From assembly GCA_008501765.1 (NCBI GenBank), contig QQUE01000002.1, forward strand, positions 680,336 through 744,335: DNA of 64,000 nucleotides, written 5' to 3'. Shown one piece after another: positions 35,568 through 44,495 of this stretch. The notes beneath the pieces are model-generated. The model was not told the origin of the DNA, did not search any database, and was given only the letters and a program-made list of their open reading frames with translations. Source of the stretch: Calditrichota bacterium (GTDB lineage: Bacteria; Zhuqueibacterota; Zhuqueibacteria; Zhuqueibacterales; Geothermadaptataceae). The first letter of the stretch is position 1. The number at the start of each line of letters is the position of its first letter. A program made the translations under genes and the position numbers.

Positions 35568-37473
35568 TCAATGTTTCACGTGAAACATTCCTTTGTGATT
35601 TAACAAGAAATGACATCAAGGCGGTAATATCAGCGGGAGAAACCCCGGAAATTCTCGAAGCCTGGGCCATCGACACCGGCTTTATTTTGTTGAGCTTCTG
35701 ACGCGCCTCCATTGAGATGCTATCAATTTTTGAATAATCTAACAATGAATCCAGTTTTTTGGCTTCCAGCTTTTGTAAACGAGATACCATATTTTCTTCA
35801 CGAATAATAAAACCGGCGTACTTAGTTGAAATTTCAACTTGCGCATCAACGCTATCCCAAAAATATTTTGAGAAAGACGCGTCACGTTGCATTAAAAACT
35901 CAGGATAAAGCAAAAGCAAATCCGCCAATGGAACCTCTGGCCGTTTTAACAACGAAGATAACTTTTCACTTTCGGCGATTTTAGTGCTGGAATGTTTTTC
36001 CAATACCGGGTTTACTTTTGCGGGTTTCACGGTGGTTGATTTTAAAAATTCCTGCGTCGATTTGATTGCTTCAATTTTATACATAAATTTATCGTAGTCA
36101 TTTTGCGGAATCAATCCAAAACCAAAACCATATTTCATCAATCTGATATCTGCATTATCCTGGCGCAAAATAAGCCTATGCTCGGCTCGAGAAGTAAACA
36201 TGCGATAAGGCTCAACAGTCCCTTTTGTTACCAAATCATCAATGAGGACTCCTATATAAGCCGAGCCACGATCGAGTACAAATGGAGATTTATCTCGAAT
36301 TTTTTGGACCGCATTAATTCCAGCCATCAGGCCCTGAACTGCGGCCTCTTCATATCCGGTTGTGCCATTGATTTGTCCCGCAAAATAAAGCCCGGATATT
36401 TCTTTTGTCTCCAGCGTGTGCAACAATTGTGTCGGATCAAAAAAATCGTATTCAACAGCGTATCCGGGGCGCATAATCTGAGCATTTTCAAGTCCCGGAA
36501 TTGTTTTGATCGCTTGCTTCTGAATATCTATGGGCAGGCTTGTTGAAAAGCCATTGACATAAATTTCTATTGTTTGCATGCCTTCAGGTTCCAGAAAAAT
36601 CTGATGCCGACTTTTATCAGCGAATCGAACAATTTTGTCTTCAATTGACGGGCAATAGCGCGGACCAACACTTTGAATGGCACCGGTATAAATCGGTGAG
36701 CGATCCAACCCCGATCGAAGAATAGAATGCGTTTCATCATTGGTATAAGTAATATAGCACGGTACCTGAACATTGTTTGGTTTTTCATTTTTAAATGAAA
36801 AACACGGAGCCGGATCATCGCCGTGCTGAATCTCTGTTTTTCCAAAATCTATCGTTCGTTTATCCAGCCGTGGTGGGGTTCCTGTTTTTAACCGATCCGT
36901 TAAGAATCCTCGATTTCGCAACGATTCGGTTAAACCTACCGCCGCATTTTCGCCTGATCTCCCGCCACTCGTTTTATCTAATCCAACAAATATTTTACCA
37001 CCAAGAAATGTTCCGGCTGTTAAAATTACCGCTTTTGAAAAATACTCAACACCGAATTGGCCCTTTACTCCTGCAACAAGATTCTTATCAAAAATTAAAT
37101 CCGTAGCCATATCCTGAACTATTGATAGATTCTCTTGCGTTTCACAGGCAATGCGTATATGATTTGCGTATTGATAGCGATCTGCCTGCGCTCGTGGAGA
37201 CCAGACTGCTGGCCCTTTGGATCGGTTTAACATGCGAAATTGAATTCCTGTTTTATCAATCGCTACAGCCATTTCGCCGCCCAAAGCGTCCAGTTCGCGA
37301 ACAAGTTGGCCTTTTGCCAATCCACCGATAGCCGGGTTGCAGGACATATGTCCGATGGTAAAAATATTCATCGTCAACAACAATGTATTGGCGCCCATAC
37401 GCGCGCTCACTAATGCCGCCTCGCTTCCCGCATGACCACCGCCAATAACTATGACATCGAATTTATTTTGCAT
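35554..37473 (-). CDS. mnmG: tRNA uridine-5-carboxymethylaminomethyl(34) synthesis enzyme MnmG
   Basis: 639 residues. FAD-binding [18 protein letters not shown] at the N-terminus, the [19 protein letters not shown] block, [19 protein letters not shown], and the helical C-terminal domain. With MnmE it modifies U34 of tRNAs reading NNA/NNG codons. The C-terminal [11 protein letters not shown] is dictated by the embedded parS site. It follows mnmE by 37 bp, and that short gap holds the second parS. Confidence 0.96.
35572..35587. promoter_or_regulatory. parS: parS centromere site 1
   Basis: Perfect 16-bp palindrome TGTTTCACGTGAAACA, identical to the near-universal ParB-binding parS consensus. 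It is embedded in the last codons of mnmG, encoding NVSRETL, and lies five bases upstream of rsmG. The conserved coding of NVSRET at this place is a known way for genomes to carry parS inside genes. Confidence 0.92.
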
Positions 37474-37487
37474 ATTAATTCCACAAA

Positions 37488-37503
37488 TGTTTCACGTGAA
37501 ACA
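37488..37503. promoter_or_regulatory. parS: parS centromere site 2
   Basis: A second perfect TGTTTCACGTGAAACA in the 37-bp spacer between mnmE and mnmG, 1.9 kb from the first and about 6 kb from the dnaA-dnaN origin. Two exact copies of a 16-mer this close to oriC leave little doubt about their role in ParB loading. Confidence 0.92.
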
Positions 37504-41380: not shown

Positions 41381-41427
41381 TTAAAAACTCCATTACATTT
41401 AAAATATAGATTCAAAACAAGTCTGTC

Positions 41428-41456
41428 ATTTTAAAGATATGCTACATAAAAGTCAA
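41428..41456 (-). promoter_or_regulatory. Promoter of rpmH-rnpA-yidC
   Basis: Minus-strand TTGACT (41456-41451) and TAAAAT (41433-41428) are separated by exactly 17 bases, with about 48 bp of leader before the rpmH start. Each hexamer matches the sigma-70 consensus at five of six positions. Confidence 0.75.
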
Positions 41457-41669
41457 GCCAAATATAAATCTTGATCTAATTTTTAAAGAATCATTTCTAT
41501 GAAAACACCCGAATTGAGAGAAATATTCTTTGATAGTAAAAGTAACATTGTTAAATTAGCCTTTTCTAATTTGTGAAAATCAAAACAGCGACATGCTTTC
41601 GCCGCGATTTGAGAATGTTTTTTGAAGAAGGGAAGAGTTACTAATTTGAAAAAAGGTGACGGTCCTTTA

Positions 41670-43064
41670 ATGCAGGATGCCGCAAAGGAAGTTTGGAATA
41701 ACTGTTTAGAAATTATTCGACTAAAATTTAACGAACAAAGCTTTCATACCTGGATACAGCCAATCAAACCAATTGAATTACACGGAGCAACGTTGACAAT
41801 TCAGGTACCGAGCGAATTCGTAAAAAAATGGATACAGGATAATTATAATAAAATTCTCATTAATGCGTTGCGAAGTATTCTGGGCACATCTGCAACATAC
41901 AAGTATGAAATCGCCCCATCAGAAGAGTTCGATATTCTGGAAATACCTCCAGTCGCTGAGCTGCCGAAAATTCAGGTGCAAGGCAAAAGCAATCAAAATG
42001 ATTTAAACCAAGTTCAGGATTCTGATGAAGATCAGCATCCAATTAATGAGCGCTATACTTTCTCCAATTTTGTTGAAGGAAGCAGCAATCAGTTTGCAAA
42101 AGCTGCTGCTTTGGCGGTAGCTGAAGCTCCAGGTAAAACTTCCTTTAATCCATTAGTAATCTATGGCGGTGTGGGACTTGGGAAAACTCACCTGATACAG
42201 GCGATTGGCAACTTTTCTCTTGAGAGTGGCATCGCTAAAAAAGTCATGTATGTTTCCAGTGAAAAATTTACCATAAATTTCATCAATTCAATTCAAAAAA
42301 ACAAAACGACTGAATTTAGTAAACTATACAGAAATGCCGATTTACTATTGGTTGACGATATTCAATTTTTCAGTAACAAAGAGCGAACACAGGAAGAATT
42401 TTTTCATACCTTCAACACGCTGCACCAAAATGGAAAGCAAATTGTACTCTCCTCAGATCGGCCACCAAAAGACATCACGGGAATTGAAGAACGGTTATTA
42501 TCGCGATTTCAATGGGGGTTGGTTACCGACATTCAACCACCCGATTTAGAGACGAGAATTGCAATTCTACAAAAAAAAGCAGAGCAAAGTGGTGCGGAAC
42601 TGGATAATGATGTTGTTCAATTAATCGCTTACAATGTGACCTCAAATATCCGTGAACTTGAGGGGGCACTTGTCAAACTTCTCGCGCACGCTTCGTTGCG
42701 AGGAAGAGACATTAATATTCTTCTTGCGAAAGAAGTTTTAAAAGATGTCATCTCCCAAAAACAAAAACATATTACGATAGAAGATATTCAAAAAATTGTA
42801 TCTGAATATTATCATATTCCTGAGGATTTTCTACGTGCCAAAACCAGAAAAAAGGAAGTTGCTCTTGCACGACAAGTTGCGATGCACATGAGTAAACAAC
42901 ATACAAAACATTCACTAAAAACCATTGGCTTGCATTTTGGCGGCAGAGACCACAGCACCGTAATTCACGCTATTAATTCAATCGGAGATAACTTAAAATC
43001 AGATAAGGTTTTACGAGACGATCTTGAAGAGATAAGCAAAAAAATCAATTTATCTTCAATTTAG
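41670..43064 (+). CDS. dnaA: Chromosomal replication initiator DnaA
   Basis: 464 residues from ATG 41670. Domain I reads AAKEVWNNCLEIIRLKFNEQSFHTW; an Asp/Gln-rich domain II linker follows; domain III has Walker A GGVGLGKTHLIQAIGNF and Walker B LLVDDIQFF; domain IV ends in the box-binding signature GGRDHSTVIHAI. In-frame TTG codons at 41622 and 41646 lie upstream; the latter has GGGAAGAG before it and is a possible start, giving 472 residues. DnaA opens oriC, located immediately downstream. The 289 bp between rpmH and dnaA contain the rpmH promoter but no DnaA-box cluster. Confidence 0.96.
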   Translation: MQDAAKEVWNNCLEIIRLKFNEQSFHTWIQPIKPIELHGATLTIQVPSEFVKKWIQDNYNKILINALRSILGTSATYKYEIAPSEEFDILEIPPVAELPKIQVQGKSNQNDLNQVQDSDEDQHPINERYTFSNFVEGSSNQFAKAAALAVAEAPGKTSFNPLVIYGGVGLGKTHLIQAIGNFSLESGIAKKVMYVSSEKFTINFINSIQKNKTTEFSKLYRNADLLLVDDIQFFSNKERTQEEFFHTFNTLHQNGKQIVLSSDRPPKDITGIEERLLSRFQWGLVTDIQPPDLETRIAILQKKAEQSGAELDNDVVQLIAYNVTSNIRELEGALVKLLAHASLRGRDINILLAKEVLKDVISQKQKHITIEDIQKIVSEYYHIPEDFLRAKTRKKEVALARQVAMHMSKQHTKHSLKTIGLHFGGRDHSTVIHAINSIGDNLKSDKVLRDDLEEISKKINLSSI

Positions 43065-43355
43065 TTATCAACACCGGAAATCTTGATAAGCGTTGAGAAC
43101 ATGTTTAAAAGAGTAGATTTATCAAGATTCATGACATACGTCTACAAATTGAATTTTAAATATTAGCAGTAATACACATTTCCCCAACAAATTTTACTTA
43201 AATGTTCTTGAATTGTTATCAAATCCAAGAGTATAGAATACCAATATTTTTAATAAATTATCAAGACGAAAAAAGAAGTTATTAACAAATAAACATAGCC
43301 TACTACTACAAATATTTCTTTTCTATATCTAAACTTTTTATTATAATTAGGGATT
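43065..43355 (+). other. oriC: Predicted replication origin oriC
   Basis: Between dnaA and dnaN. DnaA-box-like 9-mers: TTATCAACA (43065-43073), TTATCAAGA (minus strand at 43081-43089, plus strand at 43119-43127 and 43258-43266), TTATCAAAT (43216-43224) and TTATTAACA (43279-43287). Thirteen bases after the last box is TACTACTAC (43301-43309), i.e. three TAG trinucleotides on the other strand, matching the DnaA-trio element. An almost purely A/T stretch (43310-43348) follows and would be the unwinding element. None of the boxes is the canonical TTATCCACA, but the repeated TTATCAAGA suggests a lineage-specific preference. Confidence 0.82.
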
Positions 43356-43373
43356 GACCATTTGGAGGATCCT

Positions 43374-44495
43374 ATGAAATTTTCGGTAAACAAAGCCGAT
43401 TTTTTTCAAAGCTTGCAGAAAGTAATTGGCGTAATTCCACAAAAGACAACCATTCCAATTCTGAGCAATGTATTGCTGAAATTAGAAGATAATACTTTAT
43501 CAATTTCAGGAACAGACCTGGAAATTTCGATTACGACAAAGTGCAATGTATTTGACACGGAAGATGGTGGTATCACGGTATTGGGAAAACGCTTTTTTGA
43601 TATAGTCCGTGAATTGCCGGATGTCCCGATTACAGTGAGTTCTGATGAAAATAGCGTATTGACTCTTTCTACGGACAAAGGAATTTACAAATTGGTTGGG
43701 GAAGTCGAAGATGAATATCCCCAAATCGGAGTCGAGGAAGCTGACAGTACATTCTCTATTTCTTTAGAGAAATTTTCGCGCATGGTCGAAAAGACAAGTT
43801 TTGCGGTAAGTAACGATGAACTACGCACCACACTGATGGGTGTTCTCATGCAATTAACGCCAACTGAGCTGAGAATGGCGGCCACAGATGGGCATCGTTT
43901 GGCGAAAATTTGTGATTTATCTTATAAAGGCGGAGATGATTCGACCTCGGTGATTCTGCCGACAAAAGCATTACAATTGGTTACTAAAAATATTGATGAC
44001 TCCGATAATCTTGAAATCGGTGTTGGTGAAAACCATGTCACGTTCTCTTCGGGTGATACAAAAATATTTAGTAAAGTTATCGAAGGTCAATTTCCAAACT
44101 ATGATCGTGTAATACCAATCGATAATGATTTAAAAATGTTTGTAAATAGAGAATTATTGATGTCCACCGTGAGACGGATTTCTATTTTTTCAAGTGTTTA
44201 TACACATCAGATTAAATTCTCGATCAACCCATCTTCTTTAGTTATCCAGGCGGAAGATGCCGAAGTTGGCGGTGAGGCGCAAGAGTCAATTCCTGTAGAA
44301 TATAGTGGCGAACCGGTGCAAATCGGGTATAATGGAACCTATGTGCATGATATTTTGCGTCATCTTGATTGTGATGATGTTGTTTTTCACTTGAAAGATG
44401 CGGGCAGCGCGGCGATAATCCGCCCTGCCGAGCAACAAGAAGATGAAGATTTAATGATGCTGATTATGCCAATTCGTATAAGTGATTCTGTGTGA
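43374..44495 (+). CDS. dnaN: DNA polymerase III beta sliding clamp
   Basis: 373 residues from the ATG at 43374, which has GGAGG at ideal spacing; the TTG four codons earlier contains that site and is not the start. Three clamp domains are recognisable: MKFSVNKADFFQSLQKVIGVIPQKTTIPILSN, MAATDGHRLA, and the terminal LMMLIMPIRI. The ring tethers polymerase III to DNA. It starts just after oriC and is four bases upstream of recF. Confidence 0.96.
   Translation: MKFSVNKADFFQSLQKVIGVIPQKTTIPILSNVLLKLEDNTLSISGTDLEISITTKCNVFDTEDGGITVLGKRFFDIVRELPDVPITVSSDENSVLTLSTDKGIYKLVGEVEDEYPQIGVEEADSTFSISLEKFSRMVEKTSFAVSNDELRTTLMGVLMQLTPTELRMAATDGHRLAKICDLSYKGGDDSTSVILPTKALQLVTKNIDDSDNLEIGVGENHVTFSSGDTKIFSKVIEGQFPNYDRVIPIDNDLKMFVNRELLMSTVRRISIFSSVYTHQIKFSINPSSLVIQAEDAEVGGEAQESIPVEYSGEPVQIGYNGTYVHDILRHLDCDDVVFHLKDAGSAAIIRPAEQQEDEDLMMLIMPIRISDSV

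What the first reader, a model, noticed from the sequence alone, without database searches (positions are those of the whole stretch)
43065..43355. oriC between dnaA and dnaN with non-canonical DnaA boxes and a DnaA-trio
Six TTATCAAGA/TTATCAACA-type 9-mers are concentrated in 223 bp, followed after 13 bases by TACTACTAC (TAG trinucleotides on the other strand) and an A/T run. The order box-spacer-trio-AT tract reproduces the bacterial origin unwinding element described in Bacillus. The consistent A in place of C at position 6, and often G at position 8, hint at an altered DnaA box in this lineage.
Basis: partly seen in the sequence, partly recalled or inferred. Interest (0 to 1): 0.62.

Follow-up and report, generated by a model that had tools for sequence, protein, structure and literature searches.

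The report
Bacterial replication origin with weakened DnaA sites
This is the chromosome replication origin of an uncultured bacterium: its DNA-opening part is ordinary, but this genus has lost all the strong binding sites for the initiator protein DnaA from its origin, while two strong sites elsewhere on the chromosome are kept across the whole class, which hints at a remote control site for starting replication.

Summary
The region is a real oriC. It lies between dnaA and dnaN; GC skew changes sign there, with a terminus-like switch on another contig; the genome's only two parS sites are 5.6 and 7.5 kb away. Boxes are concentrated (3 of 72 genome-wide TTATCAAGA in 186 bp). A box pair, 4-nt spacer, three CTA (3'-GAT-5') trios and an AT tract meet the published BUS search rules, and the same module is present in most related origins, so the element is ordinary. 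The proposed altered DnaA box is not supported. DnaA's recognition residues match those of relatives whose origins carry TTATCCACA. Instead, this genus has lost every perfect box from its origin: the rpmH-dnaA gap shrank to about 230 bp with none, against 431-863 bp with 1-4 perfect boxes in all 32 other measurable class members. Canonical boxes persist off-origin: a pair of perfect TTATCCACA 271-301 bp apart occurs in 35 of 63 class genomes (reversed-pattern control 0), mostly at one syntenic locus; here at contig C8:185769-186097, 538 kb from oriC. A datA/DARS/DBC-like titration or control locus is the best guess. DnaA binding and function are untested.

The parts
41670..43064 (+). dnaA (ORF opens at TTG 41622; likely start ATG 41670)
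   Evidence: TIGR00362 E=1.2e-168; only DnaA in the genome; start inferred from the N-terminus
41401..41621 (.). rpmH-dnaA gap (approximate bounds): no DnaA box within 1 mismatch; in relatives this is the upstream half of the origin with 1-4 perfect boxes
43065..43073 (+). DnaA box TTATCAACA, directly after the dnaA stop codon
   Evidence: CTATCAACA in sister species
43081..43089 (-). DnaA box TTATCAAGA
   Evidence: identical in sister species G001
43119..43127 (+). DnaA box TTATCAAGA
   Evidence: identical in sister species G001
   Evidence: 8 of 9 bases conserved in G001; class boxes near -200 to -228
43216..43224 (+). doubtful box TTATCAAAT
   Evidence: 2 mismatches; not conserved in sister species
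43258..43266 (+). DnaA box TTATCAAGA, species-specific
   Evidence: not conserved in G001
43279..43287 (+). BUS upstream DnaA box TTATTAACA
   Evidence: identical in G001; aligned with tandem boxes across the class
43287..43295 (+). BUS downstream DnaA box, degenerate AAATAAACA, 8 bp after the first
   Evidence: ATATCCACA at the same place in most relatives
43300..43308 (+). three DnaA-trios (CTA CTA CTA; 3'-GAT-5' on the opposite strand)
   Evidence: meets rules of PMC8287927
43309..43352 (+). AT-rich unwinding tract, also carrying a dnaN -10-like TATAAT
   Evidence: 93% identical to the sister species over 43291-43373 against 62% over 43065-43290
43374..44495 (+). dnaN
   Evidence: TIGR00663 E=2.9e-86; ATG at 43374
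35572..35587 (.). perfect parS TGTTTCACGTGAAACA, within the 3' end of mnmG
   Evidence: one of only two in the genome
37488..37503 (.). perfect parS TGTTTCACGTGAAACA, between mnmG and mnmE

Best explanation
This is the chromosomal oriC. DnaA binds the scattered boxes of the dnaA-dnaN gap and the tandem pair 43279/43287, then oligomerises from that pair onto the three 3'-GAT-5' trios of the lower strand and melts the AT tract 43309-43352, where helicase is loaded (basal unwinding system, BUS). Shown: gene context, skew switch, parS, box enrichment, trio anatomy and its conservation in the class. Inferred: binding, unwinding, helicase loading. The unusual boxes (A6, sometimes G8) are weak variants of the normal TTATCCACA, not a new recognition sequence: this genus has lost the upstream half of an ancestrally bipartite origin and all perfect boxes of the downstream half, while strong boxes remain at off-origin sites. 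Inferred consequence: initiation depends on cooperative filling of weak boxes, competed by strong off-origin boxes.
For: dnaA/dnaN/recF/gyrB/gyrA context. GC-skew switch at C8:723 kb and the opposite switch on C14 near 200 kb. Only two parS in the genome, both nearby. Box density. Tandem-box/4-nt/CTA module significant against shuffles in 38 of 43 related dnaA-dnaN gaps. DnaA Ile190 and Arg264 equivalents conserved. Weak-box reading: no perfect TTATCCACA in either genus member's origin; rpmH-dnaA gap 241/224 bp with none, against 431-863 bp with 1-4 in all 32 others measured; domain IV contacts unchanged relative to TTATCCACA-using relatives; perfect boxes conserved off-origin in the same genus.
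Against: No binding or unwinding data. The BUS box pair is at the published tolerance limit (2 and 4 mismatches). Only 2 of 3 genus members have the origin assembled. TTATCAAGA recurs identically at two aligned sites in both species, so a mild preference of this DnaA for A6/G8 cannot be excluded. Skew rests on 1.66 Mb sampled from a 21-contig draft; one sample right of oriC is negative.
Confidence: 0.9

Rival explanations
1. The DnaA of this lineage has shifted specificity to TTATCAAGA.
For: Five TTATCAAGA and no perfect TTATCCACA in two genus origins; none of the 46 other gaps has TTATCAAGA. Two copies are conserved at aligned positions.
Against: Recognition residues identical to relatives. 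Three perfect TTATCCACA are strictly conserved off-origin in all three genus members. Genome-wide TTATCAAGA count is not raised: 72, against about 92 extrapolated from window shuffles. A6 is common across the class (24 TTATCAACA to 28 TTATCCACA).
Confidence: 0.08
2. The origin is bipartite as in Bacillus or Clostridioides, with an upstream box cluster still working before dnaA.
For: All 32 other class loci with rpmH in view have perfect boxes between rpmH and dnaA.
Against: In this genome and its sister that gap is about 230 bp with no perfect box; in the window none lies within 1 mismatch of TTATCCACA, TTATCAACA or TTATCAAGA.
Confidence: 0.05
3. The 9-mers are promoter or chance AT-rich matches and the true origin lies elsewhere.
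For: The region is 26% GC, and TCTTGATAA at 43081 also resembles a -35 hexamer.
Against: Skew switch, parS, synteny, and conservation of boxes and trio across families.
Confidence: 0.01

Closest known systems
Basal unwinding system (BUS) of Bacillus subtilis oriC (PMC8287927, PMC10721633)
   Same: Tandem DnaA boxes, short spacer, three 3'-GAT-5' trios, AT tract, between dnaA and dnaN; DnaA Ile190 and Arg264 equivalents present
   Different: Boxes overlap by 1 bp (8-bp period) and are degenerate in this genus (2 and 4 mismatches); uncultured, unnamed class
Bipartite rpmH-dnaA / dnaA-dnaN origins of Firmicutes, e.g. Clostridioides difficile (PMC7561715)
   Same: Other class members carry boxes both upstream of dnaA (rpmH-dnaA gap) and downstream
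   Different: This genus lost the upstream half
Origins built mainly of weak DnaA sites, e.g. Caulobacter crescentus (known to me; cited in PMC5043019)
   Same: No perfect consensus box at the origin
   Different: Different box variants; no CtrA-type control tested here
E. coli datA, DARS1, DARS2 and B. subtilis DnaA-box clusters (PMC4585315, PMC5010248; Bacillus from my knowledge)
   Same: For the off-origin pair: non-coding canonical boxes far from oriC, apparently maintained by selection
   Different: Two sites about 290 bp apart, often with weaker boxes 11 bp away; fixed spacing; anchored beside DUF92 or DivIC; no IHF/Fis evidence; function unknown

Membership tests
Chromosomal oriC (DnaA-dependent) | GC-skew minimum at the locus | tested here: met
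   (sampled draft genome; switch brackets C8:723.3-723.7 kb)
Chromosomal oriC (DnaA-dependent) | Cluster of DnaA boxes beyond chance | tested here: met
Chromosomal oriC (DnaA-dependent) | Replication starts here in vivo | not testable with these tools
   needs marker-frequency data
BUS (PMC8287927) | Box with at most 2 mismatches, tandem partner with at most 4 | tested here: met
   TTATTAACA (2) and AAATAAACA (4): at the limit
BUS (PMC8287927) | Spacer of at most 16 bp to at least 3 NAN trios | tested here: met
   12 nt from the first box; three perfect 3'-GAT-5'
BUS (PMC8287927) | DnaA ISM isoleucine (Ile190) and arginine finger (Arg264) | tested here: met
   alignment to 8btg
BUS (PMC8287927) | DnaA-dependent strand opening that needs boxes and trios | not testable with these tools
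   needs an in vitro strand-separation assay
Altered DnaA-box specificity | Changed base-contact residues specific to the lineage | tested here: not met
   R399, D433, H434, H439 kept; P423K and T435S shared with relatives
Bipartite origin | Box cluster upstream of dnaA | tested here: not met
   absent in this genus, present in the 32 other class members measured
datA/DARS/DBC-like locus (off-origin pair) | Conserved canonical boxes in non-coding DNA away from oriC | tested here: met
datA/DARS/DBC-like locus (off-origin pair) | Effect on DnaA nucleotide state, titration or initiation timing | not testable with these tools
   needs deletion or biochemistry

The most novel reading that the evidence does not exclude
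This bacterial class has a previously unreported replication-control locus: two perfect TTATCCACA boxes in direct orientation about 290 bp apart, often flanked at 11 bp by weaker boxes, kept at one syntenic place (beside DUF92 or DivIC) across families, with rigid mutual spacing but free distance to the genes. It acts as a DnaA titration, looping or nucleotide-exchange site. In the window's genus, where the origin has lost every strong box, initiation timing would be set by competition between a weak-box origin and this strong remote site.
Probability: 0.4. Interest if true: 0.68.

Novelty: new variant of a known kind. Interest (0 to 1): 0.45.

Why it matters
The oriC itself extends a known opening module to an uncultured class. 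The comparison makes an open question testable: how origin box strength and off-origin DnaA sites set the timing of initiation. Here one genus lost its strong origin boxes and half of its origin while a strong off-origin box pair is preserved class-wide. It also warns against reading drifted origin boxes as a changed DnaA specificity.

Tried and rejected
The third genus member (G002) has no assembled origin. The TTATCAAGA triplet at C14:963-965 kb lies in coding DNA beside glycosyltransferase genes and was judged chance. The TTATCCACA pairs 146-147 bp apart at C3:282 kb, C3:317 kb and C16:139 kb are a MITE-like repeat, not control loci. No Rfam family at the off-origin locus or its relatives' loci. 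Literature search found no paper with TTATCAAGA as a DnaA box. The off-origin pair as a second origin was rejected for this genome: skew does not change there. The off-origin pair as an operator of the response-regulator gene was judged less likely, since the neighbouring gene varies and the distance to it varies while the pair spacing does not.

Full report
OBSERVATION. Between the dnaA stop (43064) and dnaN (ATG 43374) lie TTATCAACA 43065(+), TTATCAAGA 43081(-), 43119(+) and 43258(+), TTATTAACA 43279(+) and a doubtful TTATCAAAT 43216(+). TTATCAAGA occurs 72 times in the 5.92-Mb genome; three copies in 186 bp are not matched in any 301-bp stretch of 1.66 Mb sampled DNA, nor in 2000 shuffles. 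The trio is framed CTA CTA CTA at 43300-43308.

IT IS THE ORIGIN. The gene order is mnmE-yidC-rnpA-rpmH (minus strand), then dnaA-dnaN-recF-gyrB-gyrA (plus strand). The window is contig C8:680336-744335 of a 21-contig draft. GC skew is negative in all 13 samples to the left of the locus and positive in 8 of 9 to the right; a plus-to-minus switch, as at a terminus, lies on contig C14 near 200 kb. Perfect parS sites at window 35572 and 37488 are the only ones in the genome.

THE OPENING MODULE. The rules of Pelliciari et al. (PMC8287927) are a box with at most 2 mismatches, a tandem partner with at most 4, a spacer of at most 16, and at least 3 trios. Here they are TTATTAACA (2), AAATAAACA (4), and CTA x3 starting 12 nt after the first box. 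I extracted 48 dnaA-dnaN gaps, nearly all from relatives of the same class. A module of box, 8-bp step, box (mostly ATATCCACA), 4 nt, CTA scores above shuffles in 38 of 43 usable gaps. In the sister species the segment 43291-43373 is 93% identical, against 62% for 43065-43290, within which boxes 43081, 43119 and 43279 are identical. The DnaA residues needed for the mechanism (Ile190 and Arg264 of B. subtilis) are present. So the mechanism is very likely the known one; binding and opening are inferred.

NOT AN ALTERED BOX. E. coli base contacts R399, D433, H434 and H439 are kept. P423K and T435S are shared with other families of the class, whose origins hold 28 TTATCCACA and 24 TTATCAACA. The genus differs otherwise: neither of its two assembled origins has a perfect TTATCCACA. 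Upstream of dnaA, all 32 other class loci where rpmH is in view have a 431-863 bp gap with 1-4 perfect boxes; the two genus members have 241 and 224 bp with none. The ancestral origin was thus probably bipartite, as in Firmicutes (compare PMC7561715), and this genus lost the strong half.

STRONG BOXES ELSEWHERE. The genome has 114 TTATCCACA. Three lie at C8:185769(+), 186051(+) and 186089(-), 538 kb from oriC, in a 765-bp intergenic region. The same three with nearly the same spacing occur in both other genus members, while the surrounding DNA has diverged. A search for TTATCCACA-N262-292-TTATCCACA over 63 class genomes hit 35; the reversed-pattern control hit none. About 2 are expected if all genomes had this genome's box count. 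In 22 of 33 inspected loci a DUF92 gene lies on one side, always with the boxes pointing away from it. DivIC alone anchors 4 more, and the response-regulator/DUF4388 gene 2 more, giving 28 of 33. The pair spacing is 271-301 bp (the search window itself bounds this), while distances to flanking genes and the identity of the far neighbour vary. Many sites read CCAAG-TTATCCACA-TTTT and have weaker boxes 11 bp away. A second pair near a CDP-glycerol transferase gene recurs in two genus members. This suggests a datA/DARS/DBC-like control locus; an operator for transcription is the main alternative. It lies outside the window.

LIMITS. No biochemistry; draft genomes; the lineage is unnamed (closest named DnaA hits are unclassified MAGs and Latescibacterota); class membership is as given by the tool; pattern counts need exact boxes, so prevalence is a lower bound; whether the pair exists outside the class was not tested.

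Noticed in passing
Outside the window: contig C8:185769-186097 of the same genome (L217:3270-3598; L281); relatives L218, L222-L237, L252-L280: Pair of perfect TTATCCACA 271-301 bp apart in 35 of 63 class genomes, mostly at one syntenic locus beside DUF92 or DivIC; candidate DnaA control or titration site.
   Followed up: yes
Outside the window: C8:537975-538386 (L163) and G001 C114:44497-44800: Second off-origin pair of perfect boxes upstream of orthologous CDP-glycerol transferase genes in two genus members.
   Followed up: partly
Outside the window: C8:516911-517403 (L219:1412-1904): Mostly intergenic cluster of two TTATCCACA and two TTATCAACA, all on the minus strand.
   Followed up: no
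window 35572-35587 and 37488-37503: Two perfect parS sites bracketing mnmG, the only ones in the genome.
   Followed up: yes
Outside the window: C3:282236, C3:317050, C16:139447 (L220, L187, L221): MITE-like repeat of about 190 bp with inverted TTATCCACA near its ends; it could spread DnaA boxes.
   Followed up: partly
class dnaA-dnaN gaps, about -60 to -75 from dnaN (e.g. L122, L112, L010): Conserved CTTGA followed about 17 nt later by TA-rich hexamers inside the unwinding tract, probably the dnaN promoter; the TTGA -35 is missing in this genus.
   Followed up: partly
window 41622-41670: The dnaA ORF as called opens at TTG, but the conserved N-terminus starts at ATG 41670; dnaN starts at ATG 43374, not TTG 43362.
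   Followed up: partly
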